Position numbers and translations under genes: made by a program | The notes under the pieces: model-generated | Told to the model about the DNA's origin: nothing | The model's database searches: none | Seen by the model: only the letters and a program-made list of their open reading frames with translations | In this document: positions 6,184-17,183 of the stretch, piece after piece | How the letters are laid out: each line of letters starts with the position of its first letter | How positions within the stretch are numbered: position 1 is the stretch's first letter | IMG/VR virus record: IMGVR_UViG_3300044951_000555 | Span: 1-23,031 of that record | DNA length: 23,031 nucleotides | Strand: one strand, 5' to 3' | Source of the DNA: a virus

Positions 6184-6311
6184 ATAAGTTTTGGAAGCAA
6201 ATAACCTGCTTTCACAATTACAAGTTAAGAATATTAATTCTAAACAAAAAACCGTTGTATAAGAGATTGACGCATATTTGTTCAAAGTGCGGGAAGGAGT
6301 GTAAAAGGTGA
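6180..6311 (+). CDS. 43-residue basic protein with C-terminal CxxC knuckle
   Basis: Starts at ATG 6180, overlapping the previous stop, and ends TGA 6309-6311, overlapping the GTG start of the next gene. The product is highly basic (many K/R) and ends HICSKCGKECKR, a half zinc-ribbon-like CxxC...C. An earlier C10-x-H12 could complete a metal site. Overlaps at both ends and an aggagcaaaac site support translation. Function unknown; small basic zinc-knuckle proteins often bind nucleic acid. Confidence 0.6.
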   Translation: MNKFWKQITCFHNYKLRILILNKKPLYKRLTHICSKCGKECKR

Positions 6312-6754
6312 GAGAAATACAATTAACAAACGGAGGGGTGGCGCGCGTAAGCGACGAAGATTACGAAAGAATTAATGTAAACAAGTGGCGGAAAAACACA
6401 GTTGCAAAAAATTTAACGTATGCGGTTAGAACGGTGGTAACAAACGGGAAGTGCGAGGCGGTATATATGCACCGTGAAATATTAGGCGGAGGCAGATGCA
6501 CCGACCACATCGACGGGGACGGGTTGAATAATGTAAGGGAAAACATTAGGAGTGTAACGGTGAGGCAAAACGCGCAGAACAGGCACGAGAGCAAGGTGTC
6601 AAAATACGTAGGCGTGGCAAAGGAAAGAGATAAGTGGATGGCACATATACGCATAGAGGGGAAGAAAATACGGATAGGGGCGTATTGTATCGAAGAAGAC
6701 GCAAGACGGGCGTACATAGCAGAATTGCAGAAAATAGGCGAGGTGATGTTATGA
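6308..6754 (+). CDS. HNH endonuclease with C-terminal AP2 DNA-binding domain
   Basis: A 148-residue protein with a GTG start. Residues 53-91 hold the HNH core: MHREI, D66-H67 in TDHIDGDGLNN, N74/N75 and the RQNAQNR end (HNH_3 type). Residues 99-141 (KYVGVAKERDKWMAHIRIEG, then AYCIEEDARRAYI) are an AP2/ERF-like domain that would bind DNA. This is the standard design of free-standing phage homing endonucleases. The gene overlaps both neighbours by four bases (gtga/atga), so it is seamlessly coupled to the operon, unlike the cassette at 14266. All visible catalytic positions are present, so it is probably active. Confidence 0.9.
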   Translation: MREIQLTNGGVARVSDEDYERINVNKWRKNTVAKNLTYAVRTVVTNGKCEAVYMHREILGGGRCTDHIDGDGLNNVRENIRSVTVRQNAQNRHESKVSKYVGVAKERDKWMAHIRIEGKKIRIGAYCIEEDARRAYIAELQKIGEVML

Positions 6755-9418: not shown

Positions 9419-10063
9419 ATGAGAATAGGCGTATACCAAATACAAATAAACGAAAAGAAATATATATGGAGCACAACGGTAGGATTTAAAAAGCGATGGG
9501 CGGAGCACTTGAGGAAATTAAAAAGTGGGAAGCATTCAAATAAGTATCTACAAAATATGTTTAATAAATATGGGGCGGAGTCGTTGATTTTTACTATAAT
9601 TGAAGAAGTAGAGGACAAAGAAAAGATGCTTGCATACGAACAAGCGCATATTGATAAGGTGAATCCAGAATTAAACATATGTAGAATAGCAGGAAACACG
9701 TTAGGATACGGACACACGCTAGAAACAAAAGAAAAGCAAAGAAGAAAAAAAGATGGGGTTTATTTAGGTAAAAATAACCCGTTTTTTGGAAAGACGCATT
9801 CCGACGAACAAAAACAAAAATGGTCAGAAGACAGAAAAGGCAATTATAAAAGCATGGACAAAGCAAGGTTGGCGTCTATTGAAAAAATTAAAAGGGCGGT
9901 ATTAAACATTGACACAGGCATAAAGTTTGAATCAATTAAAGAAGCAGCAGAGCATTATAATCTAAAAAGCACGCACATAACACGGGTATGTGTTGGAAAA
10001 AGAAAACACACAGGTGGGTATGCGTGGGAATATATTATACAAGGGGAGGGTACAACGTGTTAA
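9419..10063 (+). CDS. GIY-YIG endonuclease-like protein with NUMOD domains, altered signature
   Basis: A 214-residue protein between terminase and portal. The N-terminal domain follows the GIY-YIG plan: GVY (4-6), then YIW (15-17) in place of YIG, the conserved arginine R26 in KKRW, and E74 (LAYEQAHI) as the metal-binding glutamate. The gap between the two motifs is about two residues shorter than in the intact copy at 14266. Residues 117-136 (GKNNPFFGKTHSDEQKQKW) resemble NUMOD3. Residues 158-207 (VLNIDTGIKFESIKEAAEHY, then CVGKRKHTGGYAWEYI) are NUMOD1, as in modular homing endonucleases. The changed YIG makes activity uncertain. Its last 23 bases contain the portal ribosome binding site and start. 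Confidence 0.85.
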   Translation: MRIGVYQIQINEKKYIWSTTVGFKKRWAEHLRKLKSGKHSNKYLQNMFNKYGAESLIFTIIEEVEDKEKMLAYEQAHIDKVNPELNICRIAGNTLGYGHTLETKEKQRRKKDGVYLGKNNPFFGKTHSDEQKQKWSEDRKGNYKSMDKARLASIEKIKRAVLNIDTGIKFESIKEAAEHYNLKSTHITRVCVGKRKHTGGYAWEYIIQGEGTTC

Positions 10064-11445
10064 CAAGTTTGAGTTTTTTAGACATTGGCGAGGTGTTCCC
10101 GCCCGAGTGTGAGCGAGACAGGATTAAGACATACAACGAGCATAGAGCGTTATTTGAATGTAATCACGCGGAAGTGTATAAGGAAGAATTGAAGCGCATT
10201 GAGCGTGTTATATCTAATTTTCAAGACATCGTATCGTATCCAGTTATTTTTAATTATCAAAAATTAATGAGCTTGAAGGTAGCAGATTTATTATTAGGCG
10301 AGGTACCAAGCATCACGTCAAAGACGTCGCAGGAAACGATTGACGAGATAATAAAGACGAGCGATTTAATCAACACGGCATACCAAGCAGCGATTGACGT
10401 GTCGAGGTATGGCGACGGGCTTTTAGAAATTAGCAAAGAGGGCATTGATATTACACAGCCGTGTATATGGTATCCAGTAGTGGATATCAAGAACATACAT
10501 AAGATTGTGAATCACGTTATCGCATGGGCGGACGGGGACACATTAAACGTTAGAATACATTATCGGGGTTCGTACGAAACGAGGACATATAAATTAGACG
10601 GCGAAACCATAGCGAAAGAAACAGAGGCGCGTACGGTTGTTCGGACGGGGTTATCGGATTTCGCAATTATACAGATACCTAACATATTGGTATCAGACAG
10701 AATAACAGGTATGGACGATTATACAGATATCGACAGCATAGTAGCGGATATAATGGTGCGCGTGGGACAGATAGACAGAATATTAGACAAACACGCAAAT
10801 CCAAGCGTACAAGGTGCAGCGTCAGCGTTAGAGCGCGACCCTATTACAGGCGAGTACAGGTTGAAGATGGGCGGGTATTTCGCGAGAGACACAAACGACG
10901 ACCCAGAAGTTAAGTACATCACATGGGACGGGCAATTGGAAGCGAATTTCAAGCAAATCGACAAGTTAACACAAATGTTATATACAATAAGTGAAATGGG
11001 TAGTGCGGTGTTTGGCGATTTAAGCACATCAACAGGACAGGTGCCGTCGGGTAGCGCGTTAAAGAGGTTAATGATTTCGCCGTTGGCAAAGGTTAATCGC
11101 GTACGCATGAGATTCGACCCAGCGTTAAAGCAGGCGATACAGTTATGCAGTGAATTAGGCGGTATAGGCATAAAGAAAATAACTGACGTAGCGATTAAGT
11201 GGGCGGACGGATTACCGAGCGACCCAGTTGAAGAGGCTGCAATTATGAAGTCCAGAACAGCGGACAAAGCAACAATGTCGCAGTACAGGGCGTTGAAAGT
11301 ATATGATGGTATGACAGACGAAGAAGCCGATGAAGAAATGGCGCGTATCAGCGACGAGGAATCAACACCCGTCAGCATACCAGAAATTGCGCAGGGCGAG
11401 GAAAGCGAAGAACAGGAGGCGCAAGATGAGCAGATTGAGGTTTAG
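10057..11445 (+). CDS. Portal protein
   Basis: The start chosen is GTG 10057, six bases after a strong aaggggaggg site, giving 462 residues; an ATG frame start at 9988 would lie deep inside the endonuclease gene. Hallmarks of SPP1-like portals are the N-terminal helical region (VSYPVIFNYQKLMSLKVADL), the central IGRYGDGLLEIS-like DVSRYGDGLLEIS, and later VYSISEMG-like MLYTISEMGSAVFGDLSTST, with SALKRLMISPL in the long helix region. It forms the dodecameric ring through which DNA enters and leaves. The C-terminus is highly acidic (EEESEEQEA-type), as in many portals. Location between terminase and minor head gene is canonical. Confidence 0.9.
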   Translation: MLTSLSFLDIGEVFPPECERDRIKTYNEHRALFECNHAEVYKEELKRIERVISNFQDIVSYPVIFNYQKLMSLKVADLLLGEVPSITSKTSQETIDEIIKTSDLINTAYQAAIDVSRYGDGLLEISKEGIDITQPCIWYPVVDIKNIHKIVNHVIAWADGDTLNVRIHYRGSYETRTYKLDGETIAKETEARTVVRTGLSDFAIIQIPNILVSDRITGMDDYTDIDSIVADIMVRVGQIDRILDKHANPSVQGAASALERDPITGEYRLKMGGYFARDTNDDPEVKYITWDGQLEANFKQIDKLTQMLYTISEMGSAVFGDLSTSTGQVPSGSALKRLMISPLAKVNRVRMRFDPALKQAIQLCSELGGIGIKKITDVAIKWADGLPSDPVEEAAIMKSRTADKATMSQYRALKVYDGMTDEEADEEMARISDEESTPVSIPEIAQGEESEEQEAQDEQIEV

Positions 11446-11556: not shown

Positions 11557-13338
11557 ATGCCAAAGCCAATACCAGAAAACATTCAGCGGTTGAGAGACGA
11601 ATATAGAGCGTCGATGGATAGAATGTTAAAGATAGTCGAGGCGCAAGAAGCACGGGGCAACGCGACGTCATACAGAAGGAAGTTAATGACGAGCATTAAC
11701 CAAGAGATAGAGGTGCTGGACGAATTTGCGGGGAAGTGGGCGAATGGCGAAATAACCGACGCGTACAATCAAGGCATAGACAAAGTGTTAGAAACATACC
11801 GAGCAGCAAACATAAACGTGTCGGACATAGCCGCAAACAATCGGGTAATGAAAACGTTAATTAACAACACCGTTGGAAGTTTACAAGACGCAAATCAATT
11901 TATAGGTAGGTCAATCGAAGACAACATAAGGCAGGCGGGGTTAGAAGCGGTGGCGTCGGGCGTAGGCGGTGGCGTAAAGGAAATAAAAAACGTTTTACTC
12001 GAGAAGTTAAAAGACAACGGGATACCCGCAATTAAGGATAAAAATGGTAGATTAATAAAAGCAGATGCGTATGCGTCGATGGTCGCACGAACAACAACAA
12101 GAGAAGCTGCAAATAAAGCATCAATGCAAGCGGTGCAAGATGCGGGGTATGACTTAGTAAAGATACCGTCACATTTCTCGACGTGTGAGATATGCGCGGT
12201 GTATGAGGGCAGGGTATACAGCATTTCGGGCAACACGGCGGGGTATCCAAAGTTAGACGACGTATTTAGCGGTGGACATTCAACAATACACCCTAATTGC
12301 ACACACAGCGCGGTGCCATACATAATTAAATTTGACGATAACCCAGCACAGACGAAGGCGGAGTCAAACAGACCGTTTGAGTTAACGGCATCGGACAAGA
12401 GAAGCGTTGACAATTACAACAAAGAGCAAGCGGTTAAAGCACGGCGCAGAAGCGACAGGGCGGAGTGGGAAAAGGAAAAAGCAAAAGACCCACAGAGCGT
12501 GCCAAAAACGTTCAGCGCGTACAGGGCGAAAAAGAGGGCGGGAACGTTGGGAGTAGCACCGAAGGTCGTTGCAAAACCTAAAGCCGTTGTTGTTAAGTTT
12601 GTACCAGCAAAGACAATAGACGAGGCGTTTAAGGCAATGGATAAATATGCGGTTAACATAACAGTTAACAAGAATATATTTAAAAACCTTGACGACATAA
12701 ACAAAATAAACGAAACATTGTTTAATTTAACGCGCAAGTATCCAATAGACGTGTTGCAATCGATAGAGACGGGCAGAACGAAAGCGTATGCAAGCGCAAA
12801 CCGTCAAATGATTAAATTTGGGGAGGCGTTTATTAACAAGCCAAGTATTGCGTCGTACGCTTCGAATGTTGAATTCCCTAAAAAGGTCAATGAAGCGGTG
12901 GACAACACAAAATTGTGGTTAGAAAAAGCGAAAACGAAAGCATATTATAGCGAACAGGCAAGACAAAGCGACATAAAATATTACGAGAAAGTATTAAAGA
13001 AATACGAGGAAATGGCAAAGTTTTCACGCGGGAATGTAATACGTACGGGGCACGAGATTGAGGACGTTATAACACACGAATACGGGCATGTGTTGGCAGA
13101 CCAAAAGTTTAAAATGATAAATGGTGCGTATGCAAGAACGGCGGACGACAACGCAAAAATAATGGACGTAATGGTAACAAACAGCAAGGCAAGAAGAGAT
13201 GGCGATATTTATAACATATCGTCGTATGCAAAAACAGACGACCATGAGTTTTTATCAGAGGTATTCGCGATGCGAGAAACTGGGCAAGCGTTACCAGCAT
13301 ATATCACAAATATGTTAGAGAGGGTGTTTGGCAAATGA
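11557..13338 (+). CDS. MuF-like minor head protein fused to a C-terminal HExxH metallopeptidase-like domain
   Basis: The start is ATG 11557, two bases after the previous stop; the product has 593 residues. Residues 1-265 are a head morphogenesis/minor capsid domain: long helices, then VARTTTREAANKASM, and the metal-site pattern C210-x2-C213 with H245-P-N-C248, typical of MuF-related proteins. A charged, low-complexity linker (about 275-385) follows. Residues 390-593 hold HEYGH at 507-511 inside VITHEYGHVLADQ, with E564/E568 in DDHEFLSEVFA as candidate third ligand. This is the layout of a zinc peptidase of the gluzincin type. The design (minor head protein plus variable enzymatic C-terminus) matches MuF polymorphic effectors known from temperate phages. 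The domain could instead process head proteins. No signal peptide is seen. Confidence 0.8.
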   Translation: MPKPIPENIQRLRDEYRASMDRMLKIVEAQEARGNATSYRRKLMTSINQEIEVLDEFAGKWANGEITDAYNQGIDKVLETYRAANINVSDIAANNRVMKTLINNTVGSLQDANQFIGRSIEDNIRQAGLEAVASGVGGGVKEIKNVLLEKLKDNGIPAIKDKNGRLIKADAYASMVARTTTREAANKASMQAVQDAGYDLVKIPSHFSTCEICAVYEGRVYSISGNTAGYPKLDDVFSGGHSTIHPNCTHSAVPYIIKFDDNPAQTKAESNRPFELTASDKRSVDNYNKEQAVKARRRSDRAEWEKEKAKDPQSVPKTFSAYRAKKRAGTLGVAPKVVAKPKAVVVKFVPAKTIDEAFKAMDKYAVNITVNKNIFKNLDDINKINETLFNLTRKYPIDVLQSIETGRTKAYASANRQMIKFGEAFINKPSIASYASNVEFPKKVNEAVDNTKLWLEKAKTKAYYSEQARQSDIKYYEKVLKKYEEMAKFSRGNVIRTGHEIEDVITHEYGHVLADQKFKMINGAYARTADDNAKIMDVMVTNSKARRDGDIYNISSYAKTDDHEFLSEVFAMRETGQALPAYITNMLERVFGK

Positions 13339-13541
13339 ACGGTAGCAGATGCAAAACGTGTATACATTACGACGAACAAATAGACGAGTGGTCGCAATCT
13401 GACGTAATATACGAAGACGAAAGGGAAACAAAGCATTATTGTTTTGCGTATGACGATGGCGACGGGATACCAAGTGATATATGGAACGACAAGGCAATAC
13501 ACACAAAGTCAAAAGATGGTATGGTATACAGAAAAAAGTGA
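13335..13541 (+). CDS. Small cysteine-containing phage protein (68 residues)
   Basis: Overlaps the previous stop by four bases (ATGA). The sequence begins MNGSRCKTCIHYDEQ and has HYCFAYDDGDGIPSDIWNDK with a C-terminal HTKSKDGMVYRK. The pattern C-x2-C ... C-x-A-x(5)-G-I-P is a recurring small zinc-type protein seen both in phages and in bacterial chromosomes. Function unknown. It lies between the minor head and scaffold genes. After it, 58 bases with no gene hold a short gcgc-agat-gcgc hairpin (13572-13583) touching the scaffold ribosome binding site. Confidence 0.75.
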   Translation: MNGSRCKTCIHYDEQIDEWSQSDVIYEDERETKHYCFAYDDGDGIPSDIWNDKAIHTKSKDGMVYRKK

Positions 13542-13599: not shown

Positions 13600-14193
13600 A
13601 TGGCAGAAACAGACGTAATAACAACAACAGAAACAACCGCAATACCGCCAATAGGAAAAACGTTTTCGGAGGATTACGTTCGGACTATACGCGAGGAAGC
13701 GAAAGAGAATCGGTTAGCAAGAAAAGCAGCGGAGGAAGCAGCGGAGTCAGTAAAAACAATGGTAAAGACAATTTTAGGATTGTCGGCAGAGGACGTGGTG
13801 GACGTCACAAAAGCACCGTTGTACAAGAAAATGATTGACGACAACGTGAATGCAGCAATGAGTAAAGCAAATGAGAGATTGCTATTAGCAGAAATCAAAA
13901 GCCTCGAAGGCTTCGACGCGAAACTGGTAGCAAGATTGATTGACCGTAGCAAGATAAAGATTGACGAGAACGGAAACGCGGTAGGTTTGAAAGAACTCGC
14001 CGAAGAGTTGGCAAAAGAATTCCCGCAAATCAAAATTGCGAGTACGTCAACAGGGGTGAATCCGCCACCGAGTCAAGCGTTATCGGAAATCGAAACTATG
14101 AAAACACAATACGCGGAAGCGGTAAAAAAAGGAAATACCGCGGAAGCAATAGCGTTGAAAAACGCAATATTCCGAGAGGAACATAAAAAATAA
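13600..14193 (+). CDS. Scaffold protein
   Basis: A 197-residue, highly charged, mostly helical protein rich in A, E and K, with no hydrophobic core segments of note. It includes EDYVRTIREEAKENRLARKA and a helical C-terminus (ETMKTQYAEAVKKGNTAEAI). Size, composition and position directly before the capsid gene region fit the internal scaffold that guides capsid assembly and then leaves. The start lies behind gcggaggga. The gene is separated from the capsid gene by the endonuclease cassette at 14217-14966. Confidence 0.8.
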   Translation: MAETDVITTTETTAIPPIGKTFSEDYVRTIREEAKENRLARKAAEEAAESVKTMVKTILGLSAEDVVDVTKAPLYKKMIDDNVNAAMSKANERLLLAEIKSLEGFDAKLVARLIDRSKIKIDENGNAVGLKELAEELAKEFPQIKIASTSTGVNPPPSQALSEIETMKTQYAEAVKKGNTAEAIALKNAIFREEHKK

Positions 14194-14265: not shown

Positions 14266-14910
14266 ATGCCAATTAAAAACCATATATCCGGTATATATTG
14301 CATTAGAAACACAATAACAAACAAGGTGTATATCGGACAATCCAAGTCTTGTACCACGCGATGGCGCGGACATAAAAGCGAATTAAAAGGCGGGTATCAT
14401 GGCAATAGTTATTTACAGGCATCTTATAACAAGTATGGGTTAGAGGCTTTTGAATATTCTATCCTTGAAGCCTGTATTGAAGATCAGCGCGATCAACGCG
14501 AGTTATATTGGATTGGGTTTTATAATGCCACAGACAGAAGTTGTGGATATAACAGATTGTTTGGAGGCTGTCAAAACAAAAATCATTCACAAGAAACAAA
14601 AGATAAAATTCGCGAAGTTCTCAAACAAAAAAACATTACGCCTCCGAGTAGAAAAGGGGTAAAATGGTCAGAAGAACATAAAGCACACATGTCTGAAATG
14701 ATGACAGGAAGAAAGTTGCCGCCATGTTCAGAAGAAAAGAAAGAAAAACTTAGATTAGCTAACTTAGGGAAGAAAGCGTCAGAAGAAACGAGAAAAAAAC
14801 TAAGTGAAGCAAAGATTGGCAATAAAAACATGGTTGGATTTCATGTTTCTGACGAAACAAAGCAAAAAATATCCTTAGCTCAAAAAGGGGTACCAAAGAG
14901 GCAAAAGTAG
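14266..14910 (+). CDS. GIY-YIG homing endonuclease with NUMOD3 repeats
   Basis: A 214-residue protein with an intact GIY-YIG domain: GIY (9-11), YIG (22-24), R32 (TTRW) and E79 (QRELYWI). The C-terminal half carries several NUMOD3-type motifs of the form S-E-E-x-K...K-x-S/L-A-x-x-G, at about 105-125, 133-149, 154-169, 172-185 and 195-208. These are DNA-binding modules of homing endonucleases. The start follows aaggagttgat by eight bases. The gene has its own promoter (14217-14245) and terminator (14938-14966), so it is a self-contained unit between scaffold and capsid genes. It resembles the 9419 protein around the core (YLQ...NKYG.E) but is otherwise diverged. Probably active. Confidence 0.92.
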   Translation: MPIKNHISGIYCIRNTITNKVYIGQSKSCTTRWRGHKSELKGGYHGNSYLQASYNKYGLEAFEYSILEACIEDQRDQRELYWIGFYNATDRSCGYNRLFGGCQNKNHSQETKDKIREVLKQKNITPPSRKGVKWSEEHKAHMSEMMTGRKLPPCSEEKKEKLRLANLGKKASEETRKKLSEAKIGNKNMVGFHVSDETKQKISLAQKGVPKRQK

Positions 14911-14990: not shown

Positions 14991-15932
14991 ATGGCAAACG
15001 AGGCGACTGGAACATTGTGGGCGCTTCCCAATTATACGGGGGAACTCTTCACAGCCGACATGATTAACACACCATTTCTATCAATGATTGGTGGATTAAC
15101 AGGTGGCAGACAAACAAACAATTTCGAATTTCCTACATCGAGCGAGTACGACCATGAAGCGCTTGCACAGGAAAACATCACAGAGGACGAGTCAATTGCT
15201 GGCGTATCACCAATCAATTACGTCCGAGACCAAATCAAGAACGTAACACAGATATTCCAAGCGGAAGTGTTGCTATCTTACGTTAAGCAATCGAATCAAG
15301 GCAGGCTACTCGGTATAAACACCGCAGGCGCATCTAACAACGTTATGAGCGAGTTGGATTGGCAGATAGCTAAAGCACTTGAAGGAATTGCACGCAGAGT
15401 TGAATGGCATTTTCTGCAAGGGACTTATTCGCTAGCGGCAGCAGCAAACCAATCAAACCAAACAAGAGGAATGATTGAAGCGTGTTCCGTTAACACAGTA
15501 GCAGCAGCAGGCGCGAAATTGAGTAAAGCACTCATGGACGAGCTGTTGCTTGAAATGTTCACCAACGGCGCGATGTTCAAAAACATGGTTATATTCTGCG
15601 GCGGTTTCCAAAAACAACAGTTATCTAATATTTATGGTTATGCACCAGAGGACAGAAATGTCGGCGGCGTAAACATCAAGCAGTTAGAAACTGATTTTGG
15701 TAACATCGGCGTAGCACCAGCGCACAGAATGCAACCCGCAGCAATACTCGGTATATACGACATGAGCGTTATTGCACCAGTGTTCCAGCCAGTACCTAAC
15801 AAGGGTAACCTATTCTATGAGGAATTGGCAAGAACAGGCGCAGCACAAAACGGTCAGATATTCGGGCAGATTGGTTTAGACCACGGGCCAAAATTTGCAC
15901 ATGGTACATTGACAGGGCTAGCAATAGCATAA
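14991..15932 (+). CDS. Major capsid protein, SU10/DUF5309-type
   Basis: A 313-residue protein starting behind aggaggaa. It has the HK97-fold capsid style of the SU10-like (DUF5309) group: LFTADMINTPFLSMIGG near the N-terminus, then FEFPTSSEY. A conserved tail-ward segment follows (FCGGFQKQQLSNIYGYAPED, later APAHRMQPAAILGIYDMSVI), and the end is GQIGLDHGPKFAHGTLTGLA. There is no long N-terminal helical delta domain, consistent with a separate scaffold gene. It forms the capsid shell. The position after scaffold and the length are normal. A GC-rich hairpin follows the stop. Confidence 0.88.
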   Translation: MANEATGTLWALPNYTGELFTADMINTPFLSMIGGLTGGRQTNNFEFPTSSEYDHEALAQENITEDESIAGVSPINYVRDQIKNVTQIFQAEVLLSYVKQSNQGRLLGINTAGASNNVMSELDWQIAKALEGIARRVEWHFLQGTYSLAAAANQSNQTRGMIEACSVNTVAAAGAKLSKALMDELLLEMFTNGAMFKNMVIFCGGFQKQQLSNIYGYAPEDRNVGGVNIKQLETDFGNIGVAPAHRMQPAAILGIYDMSVIAPVFQPVPNKGNLFYEELARTGAAQNGQIFGQIGLDHGPKFAHGTLTGLAIA

Positions 15933-15986: not shown

Positions 15987-17183
15987 ATGGGAGCAATAGA
16001 CGTAAATTACAACAAGTTAAGAAACCCACAGTTAAAAGATTGGGCGGAGCATGAATTTCACGACGTTTTGTTTGCAACAGCAGACGGACATGACCATGAC
16101 GGTGTAAATTCAAAAACATTGAATCCAGCGGCAGTTATTGCCAATGATTCAATAACCACAGTTAAAATACTTGACAACGCAGTAACCTCGCCAAAGATAG
16201 TAAATGATGCGGTAACCACATTAAAAATAATTAATGGTGCGGTAACCACAGCTAAAATCGGCGCAGATGCGATTGATGGCACAAAGATAGCCGACAATGC
16301 AGTTGATAGCGAACATATAGTTGCAGGGGCAATCGACACGGCACACATCGGGTTGTTACAGGTCACAACAGCGGTAATCGCAGCAGATGCGATAACAGGC
16401 GCACAGCTGGCCGACAACGCAGTAGATAGTGAACACTATGTAGACGGGTCGATTGACACAGCACATTTTGCAGCAGGCGCGGTAGACGCAACAGCAATCG
16501 GAGCAGATGCAGTTATCACAGCGAAGATATTAGACGATAACGTCACTAACGCCAAACTGGCTAACATGACGCGCGGTACAATCAAAGTCGGTGGCGCAGC
16601 AGATGCACCGACAGATTTAGATGCAAAAGGTAGTGGTAAAATATTAATCGGTGATGGTACAGATATTACAAGCGCAACCGTGTCTGGTGACATAACCATT
16701 AGCGCAACAGGGGTAACAGCAATAGGCGCAGTTAAAGTATTAAAAGCGATGATTGGCGCAGATGCGATTGATGGAACTAAATTGGCAGACAACGCAGTTG
16801 ATAGTGAACACATCACAGCGGGGTCGGTTGATACCTCTCACTTTGCGGCAATTACCACCCCAATGGCAAGGGCAATCACAGCAGCACATGCAGCGGCGAT
16901 ACCAGTTACAGGCAACGGTAACCTTGCATTAACAATAGCAGACGCAGCAGAAACAAATACTCTTGCGGTGCCTACCTTTGCGGGACAAATGATTGCAATA
17001 TCGGTTGACACATTGGCGGGTGGCGGAACGCGTGAGATAACAGTAGCAACAGCAATCAATGCAGCAGGAAACACTAAAATTACGCTAAATACAGCAGGTG
17101 ATTTTATTGTGTTGTATGGATTTAAGTTGGGCGCGTCGTTTGCATGGCGCATATTGGCATCGGACGGAGTTACATTATCATAA
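15987..17183 (+). CDS. Capsid-associated fibre-like protein with decapeptide repeats
   Basis: A 398-residue protein directly after the capsid gene, with an aaaaggagga site. Residues 1-45 form a head domain (LKDWAEHEFHDVLFATADGH, then DHDGVNSK). Residues 46-195 are about 15 copies of a ten-residue unit such as VTTAKIGADA / VDSEHIVAGA. A spacer with KGSGKILIGDGTDITSAT follows, then four more units (251-290). The C-terminal domain (about 300-398) includes GTREITVATAINAAGN and FIVLYGFKLGASFAW and is probably globular beta. The repeat type is known from phage fibres, including capsid-attached ones. Because it sits in the head module and not among tail genes, a head fibre or decoration role is inferred. 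Confidence 0.75.
   Translation: MGAIDVNYNKLRNPQLKDWAEHEFHDVLFATADGHDHDGVNSKTLNPAAVIANDSITTVKILDNAVTSPKIVNDAVTTLKIINGAVTTAKIGADAIDGTKIADNAVDSEHIVAGAIDTAHIGLLQVTTAVIAADAITGAQLADNAVDSEHYVDGSIDTAHFAAGAVDATAIGADAVITAKILDDNVTNAKLANMTRGTIKVGGAADAPTDLDAKGSGKILIGDGTDITSATVSGDITISATGVTAIGAVKVLKAMIGADAIDGTKLADNAVDSEHITAGSVDTSHFAAITTPMARAITAAHAAAIPVTGNGNLALTIADAAETNTLAVPTFAGQMIAISVDTLAGGGTREITVATAINAAGNTKITLNTAGDFIVLYGFKLGASFAWRILASDGVTLS
16122..16571 (+). repeat. Main block of 30-bp (10-codon) coding repeats
   Basis: Fifteen in-phase units of exactly 30 bases, diverged in DNA but regular in protein: V/I at position 1, K/H at 5, I/F/L at 6, A/S at 10. The exact period without indels suggests structural constraint on a fibre shaft. 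A shorter block of four units lies at 16737-16856. Confidence 0.85.

What the first reader, a model, noticed from the sequence alone, without database searches (positions are those of the whole stretch)
11557..13338. Minor head protein carrying a zinc-metallopeptidase-like domain: candidate virion-delivered effector
The N-terminal ~265 residues are a MuF-like minor head domain with CxxC...HPNC; after a charged linker comes a ~200-residue domain with HEYGH (507-511) and a downstream acidic pair (E564/E568). MuF proteins with toxin-type C-termini are a described polymorphic family of temperate phages, but this particular peptidase end is not one I can name. An immunity gene would be expected nearby if it were toxic: the 68-residue gene at 13335 overlaps it by four bases, although that looks like a conserved small zinc protein. 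No prohead protease gene is seen in the head module, so the peptidase could also be a maturation protease.
Basis: partly seen in the sequence, partly recalled or inferred. Interest (0 to 1): 0.75.

Follow-up and report, generated by a model that had tools for sequence, protein, structure and literature searches.

The report
Phage head protein carrying zinc protease
A minor head protein of an uncultivated phage ends in a zinc protease that is probably carried in the particle and released into the bacterium at infection, and the tiny gene overlapping it belongs to a little-known family that repeatedly sits beside such phage-borne enzymes.

Summary
Window 11557-13338 encodes a 593-residue minor head protein: residues 55-328 match Phage_min_cap2 (E 6.3e-28), and the C-terminal ~250 residues carry HEYGH (507-511) and E564/E568. 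The model of residues 330-593 (mean pLDDT 83.5) aligns over nearly its whole length with peptidase family M34 (lethal factor Z 12.0; Pro-Pro endopeptidases 8.8-10.3). The window protein has no Pfam ATLF match, so I call it M34-like.

The C-terminus is a swapped module. Its closest homologue found (E 5e-24) sits on a different MuF family (PF04233). The closest homologue found of the N-terminus lacks the domain; that phage's capsid protein is 79% identical over 211 residues. This favours a virion-carried effector over a maturation protease.

The overlapping 68-residue gene belongs to a CCCH family resembling phrog_33375. A search blind to the neighbouring gene found the peptidase domain just upstream in 54 of 80 loci, against 3 of 76 MuF ORFs in a MuF-blind sample. 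The family also follows ADP-ribosyltransferase and zeta-toxin MuFs, so it may be an adaptor rather than cognate immunity.

MuF metallopeptidase toxins are published; four paper searches showed no description of this companion.

The parts
11557..13338 (+). minor head protein with C-terminal zinc-peptidase-like domain, 593 aa
   Evidence: start codon by comparison with L091
11719..12540 (+). MuF-like minor head domain, residues 55-328 (PF06152, phrog_4611)
   Evidence: PF06152 E 6.3e-28; phrog_4611 E 4.2e-45, residues 8-328
12592..13335 (+). M34-like zincin domain, about residues 346-593
   Evidence: model pLDDT 83.5; Z 12.0 to lethal factor catalytic domain, 8.8-10.3 to PPEPs; profile E 3.6e-10 to PDB 2l0r; homologue on another MuF E 5e-24
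13075..13089 (+). HEYGH, residues 507-511 (predicted zinc ligands H507, H511; general base E508)
   Evidence: H, E, H invariant in 68 of 68 aligned domains (many rows were chosen by this motif); roles by analogy, recalled
13246..13260 (+). EFLSE, residues 564-568 (E564 predicted third zinc ligand)
   Evidence: both glutamates conserved in at least 90% of 68 rows; ligand role by analogy with M34, recalled
13335..13541 (+). companion gene, 68 aa, CCCH signature (C6, C9, C36, H56), overlapping the peptidase gene by 4 bases
   Evidence: relation to L179 ORF; phrog_33375 E 0.031 for this protein, 7e-12 to 2e-4 for 5 of 5 relatives tested; alignment A5
9988..11445 (+). portal protein (context)
   Evidence: PF05133 E 3.6e-10
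13600..14193 (+). scaffold-like protein (context)
   Evidence: PF06810 E 1e-6, below cut-off
14991..15932 (+). major capsid protein, SU10 type (context)
   Evidence: PF17236 E 2e-59

Best explanation
The gene encodes a head-associated carrier (MuF-like part) with an M34-like zinc endopeptidase at its C-terminus. A few copies are probably built into the capsid beside the portal, leave with the DNA, and cleave one or a few host proteins early in infection. The overlapping 68-residue CCCH protein is made in the same producing cell. It most likely holds the peptidase inactive, or helps load it, until packaging; I slightly prefer an adaptor or loading factor to a strict immunity protein, because the same family follows MuFs with other effectors. 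Shown here: the two-domain architecture, the M34-like fold prediction, the swap of the C-terminal module between different MuF families, and the recurrent neighbour. Inferred: packaging, injection, catalytic activity, host target and the companion's role.
For: N-terminus is a minor head domain in a portal-MuF-scaffold-capsid order. The C-terminal domain has the fold of M34 peptidases (profile E 3.6e-10 to a PDB chain) and keeps HExxH and ExxxE. It is portable: the closest homologue found (E 5e-24) sits on a PF04233 MuF (E 9.3e-17) whose N-terminus is barely comparable to ours (E 0.031). L232 is another PF04233 case. Among 46 proteins scanned (the window's and 45 chosen by the domain motif), 12 match PF04233 and 7 the lambda-type portal. 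The closest N-terminal homologue found (L091, E 5.8e-93, 356 aa) has no such domain although its capsid protein is 79% identical over the 211 residues held. A cultured phage described among lytic ones, Flavobacterium phage lotta8-1, has the same layout: MuF-zincin gp28 (profile E 1.6e-18), overlapping CCCH gp29, and a separate gene annotated as ClpP-type protease. MuF proteins with enzyme tails are tested antibacterial toxins in Apk2 and Bxa (PMC12226406, PMC11699363, passages read).
Against: No result shows that this protein is in the particle, is injected or cleaves anything. Sequence alone misses the M34 family: the window protein has no ATLF match, only M48 at E 0.16, and no PDB hit by phmmer. 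Foldseek's own PDB list had no significant match; the M34 rows come from the second-look aligner, where a putative metal-dependent hydrolase (3dl1, Z 9.7) ties with the PPEPs and some rows match only the long helices. tblastn of the C-terminus matched none of 50,697 phage or 72,556 plasmid records at E up to 1, although it thereby missed the distant relative in lotta8-1; two GTDB searches found none. The companion is not obligatory: 13 of 134 motif-selected domain ORFs had it, one of them this phage, plus L133 once extended. Neither of the two MuF-blind domain ORFs with downstream DNA had it.
Confidence: 0.62

Rival explanations
1. Capsid maturation protease: the C-terminal domain cleaves scaffold or head proteins during assembly.
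For: It is fused to a head protein; I recognised no other prohead protease among the window's ORFs by eye (not every ORF was scanned against families); several MuF relatives are annotated 'capsid maturation protease'.
Against: No ORF of 15 loci with a related capsid protein matches the domain (phmmer E up to 1), including L091 with a short MuF; three of the 15 (L085, L088, L090) hold too little upstream DNA to show a MuF gene. lotta8-1 has the MuF-zincin and a separate annotated ClpP-type protease. The fold is not that of known prohead proteases (recalled).
Confidence: 0.12
2. Polymorphic toxin of lysogens: the peptidase kills or inhibits competitors, and the 68-residue gene is the cognate immunity protein.
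For: MuF toxins are typically followed by a small ORF: 89.4% of 191 against 25.5% of 952 short MuFs (PMC5576092 section 8). Here the small gene overlaps by 4 bases, its family is strongly enriched behind such domains, and among 34 compared loci the window's nearest relative is the same locus, L179, for both domain and companion. The contig of L179/L133 has a serine-recombinase match (PF00239 E 2.3e-11 in a 539-residue frame), so that phage may be temperate.
Against: The same small family follows MuF-ART and MuF-zeta-toxin proteins and occurs in lotta8-1, treated as lytic. No PF00589 or PF00239 match in three contigs carrying this gene, the longest 37,362 bases. Similarity-matrix correlation of companion and domain is weak (rho 0.14, p 0.061, 33 loci).
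Confidence: 0.2
3. The domain is structural or catalytically dead, a leftover of module exchange.
For: No activity shown.
Against: HExxH is kept in 57 of 57 profile hits in the small-gene loci (the profile was built from HExGH sequences), and both glutamates are conserved in at least 90% of 68 rows.
Confidence: 0.06

Closest known systems
MuF polymorphic toxins with metallopeptidase domains (Jamet et al. 2017, PMC5576092)
   Same: MuF N-terminus, C-terminal enzyme extension, head-module location, small ORF behind; the paper reports a metallopeptidase domain in 20% of 191 putative MuF toxins (section 7).
   Different: The sections and passages read do not name the peptidase family or describe a conserved CCCH companion; a temperate lifestyle is not shown for this phage. 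Its supplementary tables could not be read here.
Peptidase family M34: anthrax lethal factor catalytic domain and Pro-Pro endopeptidases (Pfam ATLF, PF07737)
   Same: Fold over nearly the whole domain (Z 12.0 and 8.8-10.3), HExxH and a downstream ExxxE.
   Different: No Pfam ATLF match for the window protein; carried on a phage head protein instead of a receptor-binding toxin or a secreted enzyme; two long helices precede the HExxH helix.
Zincin-like MPTases of phage polyvalent proteins (PMC5512222)
   Same: Zincin domain in phage proteins proposed to be packaged and delivered at infection.
   Different: The passages read did not show this MuF fusion; membership in its 12 clades was not tested.
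Apk2 and Bxa MuF toxins (PMC12226406, PMC11699363)
   Same: MuF carrier with an enzyme tail and small partner genes that neutralise it (passages).
   Different: Their enzymes are a (p)ppApp synthetase and an ADP-ribosyltransferase; their immunity genes are tested, this companion is not.
phrog_33375 (unknown function)
   Same: Five of five tested companion relatives match it (E 7e-12 to 2e-4).
   Different: The window's own 68-residue protein matches only weakly (E 0.031).

Membership tests
MuF polymorphic toxins | N-terminal MuF-type minor head domain | tested here: met
   PF06152 E 6.3e-28; phrog_4611 E 4.2e-45
MuF polymorphic toxins | gene lies in the head module | tested here: met
   between portal and scaffold-like/capsid genes
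MuF polymorphic toxins | variable C-terminal enzyme domain shared with other N-termini | tested here: met
MuF polymorphic toxins | small ORF directly downstream | tested here: met
   68 aa, 4-base overlap
MuF polymorphic toxins | temperate phage or prophage | tested here: inconclusive
   no PF00589 or PF00239 match in 3 contigs carrying this gene, the longest 37,362 bases; fragments
MuF polymorphic toxins | toxicity neutralised by an immunity protein | not testable with these tools
   needs expression
Peptidase family M34 (ATLF/PPEP) | zincin fold of the M34 catalytic domain | tested here: met
   Z 12.0, rmsd 3.4, 154 residues aligned to 1j7n_B; Foldseek alone not significant
Peptidase family M34 (ATLF/PPEP) | HExxH and downstream glutamate ligand | tested here: met
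   H507, E508, H511, E564; geometry not measured; ligand assignment recalled
Peptidase family M34 (ATLF/PPEP) | Pfam PF07737 above its cut-off | tested here: not met
   no match for the window protein; 9 of 46 proteins match at E up to 0.01; the seven scores shown for relatives are all under the 27.4-bit cut-off
phrog_33375 | profile match of the 68-residue protein | tested here: inconclusive
   E 0.031; phmmer E 1.3e-9 to the L179 companion in a 9-sequence set
phrog_33375 | CCCH residues (C6, C9, C36, H56) of the companion family as aligned here | tested here: met
   present in 68 of 68 aligned rows; C36 was in the search pattern and CxxC required by the script, H56 in neither
Capsid maturation protease | present throughout phages with this head module | tested here: not met
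   no match in 15 of 15 capsid-related loci; three of them show no MuF gene for lack of upstream DNA

The most novel reading that the evidence does not exclude
The CCCH family around phrog_33375 is a dedicated partner of virion-carried effectors: a small zinc-binding adaptor or inhibitor that keeps C-terminal effector domains (mostly M34-like peptidases, also ADP-ribosyltransferases and zeta-toxin kinases) silent or guides them into the head. Peptidase domain and partner move between unrelated MuF carriers as a two-gene cassette, as in this window and L179.
Probability: 0.4. Interest if true: 0.65.

Novelty: new variant of a known kind. Interest (0 to 1): 0.5.

Why it matters
MuF proteins with predicted toxin tails are numerous (191 in Jamet et al.), but the passages read name few tested ones and no substrate of a peptidase tail. 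This family offers a compact test: a defined peptidase fold, a frequent small partner gene, and a cultured phage (lotta8-1) with the same two-gene arrangement. If the partner serves several effector types, it would be a general part of how phages carry enzymes in their heads.

Tried and rejected
Sequence-only naming of the domain: phmmer against PDB found nothing; Pfam gave only M48 at E 0.16. tblastn of the C-terminus in phages and plasmids: no match. Exact-peptide searches of IMG/VR returned only the same phage. GTDB contigs: no relative of the whole protein, and a tight motif gave 0 stretches. Foldseek against PDB: no match under E 0.001; against viral models the best was E 4.5e-3. A capsid-protein search of IMG/VR gave 19 loci, four of them this phage; the other 15 were used.

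Companion as peptidase-specific immunity protein: not established. Of 80 blind small-gene loci, 54 have the domain in the ORF ending just upstream. Three more loci hit the profile elsewhere: L240, where small motif and HExxH share one ORF; L245; and L214, with HExxH far from the C-terminus. Of the 26 upstream ORFs without a hit, 20 were scanned against Pfam: they include MuF-ART, ART, MuF-zeta toxin and MuF with unassigned tails, and several gave no family. No Cys-type gene was seen behind 53 short MuFs, 14 extended MuFs or 2 domain MuFs of the MuF-blind sample (76 of 80 ORFs passed as MuF; 4 open at the C-terminus and 3 without downstream DNA set aside). That sample used GC-leaning codons.

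Similarity-matrix (mirror-tree) test: Cys-domain rho 0.14, p 0.061; Cys-MuF 0.04, p 0.325; domain-MuF 0.13, p 0.031 (35 loci including the window, 33 after removing near-duplicates; loci with short N-termini dropped). Inconclusive. Companion structure: pLDDT 73.4, one PDB match at E 9.4; not interpretable. One search used a wrong frame and was repeated. The alignment used 65 of the 70 printed stretches (81 in all), the window, L179 and L180.

Full report
Observation. The gene at 11557-13338 is real and reads 593 residues. Its N-terminal part is a minor head domain (PF06152 E 6.3e-28, residues 55-328; phrog_4611 E 4.2e-45). The gene follows a portal gene and precedes a scaffold-like protein and an SU10-type capsid protein. 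The small gene at 13335 overlaps by four bases.

What the C-terminus is. Sequence libraries did not name it. A degenerate DNA pattern built from the window's own motif (HExGH, a gap, YA, a gap, EFxxE) matched 65 IMG/VR stretches; 66 of 66 matches were in frame within ORFs of 160 residues or more. A second codon version gave 80 stretches, among them contigs of this same phage. Of 46 proteins scanned (the window's and 45 of these), Pfam recognised PF04233 MuF in 12, lambda-type portal in 7, PF06152 in 2 (one is the window's), and ATLF in 9 at E up to 0.01. A 68-row alignment headed by residues 330-593 gave an AlphaFold model of mean pLDDT 83.5 and pTM 0.73. The profile of that alignment hits lethal factor chains best (E 3.6e-10 for 2l0r, about 8e-8 for longer chains). 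The second-look aligner puts lethal factor catalytic domains first (Z 12.0, rmsd 3.4, 154 residues), then Pro-Pro endopeptidases at 8.8 to 10.3, each spanning nearly the whole model; a putative metal-dependent hydrolase (3dl1) ties with the latter at 9.7. Foldseek alone was not significant against PDB, so the fold assignment rests on profile and aligner together. I call it M34-like; the Pfam threshold for membership is not met.

A swapped module. phmmer with the C-terminal 253 residues against ORFs of the fetched loci finds L133 at E 5e-24 over most of the domain, and L232 at 4.9e-11. L133's N-terminus is a PF04233 MuF that BLASTP barely relates to ours (E 0.031). Conversely, phmmer with the N-terminal 330 residues finds L091 (E 5.8e-93), L094 and L084 among 15 loci fetched by the capsid protein; these proteins are 356, 361 and 370 residues, hence without the domain, and no ORF of the 15 loci matched the C-terminal domain at E up to 1. 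Three of the 15 hold too little upstream DNA to show a MuF gene (L085, L088, L090). Other capsid-related loci have longer MuFs with other tails, such as L092 with DUF6883.

The neighbour. After fetching more of L133's contig, the ORF directly behind it (L179:6650-6838) proved similar to the window's 68-residue protein (phmmer E 1.3e-9 in a nine-sequence set). L112 has a related ORF in the same place. In 54 of 80 the ORF ending just upstream matches the peptidase-domain profile at E below 1e-3. Among all 1255 ORFs of 150 aa or more in these loci there were 57 profile hits, 54 of them that upstream ORF. In a MuF-blind sample, 3 of 76 MuF ORFs matched the profile, and none of 53 short MuFs had the small gene behind it. 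Fisher's test for 54 of 80 against 3 of 76 gives p 4e-18; it treats the loci as independent, although some are near-duplicates (76 clusters at 80% identity, 51 with the domain). Against the association: only 13 of 134 motif-selected domain ORFs have the small gene behind them, one being this phage, so most carriers of the domain do without it. Five of five tested relatives of the small protein match phrog_33375, of unknown function. Aligned, 68 of 68 rows keep C6, C9, C36 and H56 in window numbering; the histidine was in neither the pattern nor the script's filter. This suggests a zinc site (inference).

Against a simple immunity reading. Upstream proteins in the remaining loci include MuF-ART (L239; L259 with weak MuF), ART (L217; L243 below cut-offs), MuF-zeta toxin (L198) and MuF with unassigned tails. 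In L029 the small domain is joined to a following protein that looks MuF-like by eye, and in L240 it shares an ORF with an HExxH. A general adaptor or silencing factor for effector MuFs therefore fits at least as well. A matrix-correlation test was weak, although the window's nearest relative is the same locus for domain and companion.

A cultured example. Flavobacterium phage vB_FspM_lotta8-1 has gp28 (PF04233 by its record, 516 residues, HEFGH at 419, EFIAE at 483; domain profile E 1.6e-18) overlapped by gp29, a member of the small family, and separately gp34, annotated as protease by PF00574. The protein is identical to that of L222, one of the 54, so it is not an extra case. The isolating paper treats its genus, Pippivirus, with the lytic phages and names another phage as the temperate one (PMC7077304, passages read); the passages report no virion proteomics. 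A lytic carrier speaks for a role in infection rather than in competition between lysogens. Against that, L133's contig has a serine-recombinase match, so the closest relative may be temperate; this phage's three contigs have no PF00589 or PF00239 match.

Literature. Jamet et al. report metallopeptidase domains in 20% of 191 putative MuF toxins and small ORFs behind 89.4% of them (PMC5576092, sections 7 and 8 read). They suggest that moderately toxic tails such as peptidases could guide lysis-lysogeny decisions or resist host defence (passage). Zhang et al. list lethal-factor-like toxin domains for PVC and type II systems, not MuF (PMC3482391, table passages). A full-text search for phrog_33375 found no paper. 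The listing for M34, lethal factor and MuF showed no title on such a fusion, the listing led to none beyond the papers above, and one search found no paper. Many subscription papers are not in that library.

Verdict. Its kind is published; the M34-like assignment and the companion family add to it. Fold and architecture are well supported, delivery and target are inference, and the companion's role is open.

Noticed in passing
window 9419-10063, 14266-14910, 6308-6754: Three free-standing homing-endonuclease-like genes: two GIY-YIG with NUMOD motifs, one between terminase and portal and one between scaffold and capsid, and one HNH/AP2 (HNH_3 and AP2 below their cut-offs).
   Followed up: partly
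window 15987-17183: Protein behind the capsid gene made of many near-repeats of a short unit (NAVDSEHI/DAIDGTKIAD type), seen by eye.
   Followed up: no
L091:4954-5277: In the closest relative found by head module, a 107-residue ORF overlaps the short MuF by four bases; it looks ADP-ribosyltransferase-like to me (recalled), Pfam gave only Tudor_4 below cut-off.
   Followed up: partly
L029: Portal protein carrying the zincin domain, followed by an ORF in which the small CCCH domain is joined to what looks like a MuF protein.
   Followed up: no
L240:1916-4918: The CCCH motif and an HExxH motif lie in one 1001-residue ORF.
   Followed up: no
L048:2185-7271: Two consecutive ORFs each carrying the HExGH-type motif.
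   Followed up: no
L190, L191, L206, L208, L231, L244, L248: MuF-type proteins (L190 and L191 below the Pfam cut-off) followed by the small CCCH gene end in similar-looking unassigned tails; possibly another effector family.
   Followed up: no
L259:2182-5118: Single ORF with portal and MuF matches below cut-off and an ADP-ribosyltransferase match, followed by the CCCH gene.
   Followed up: no
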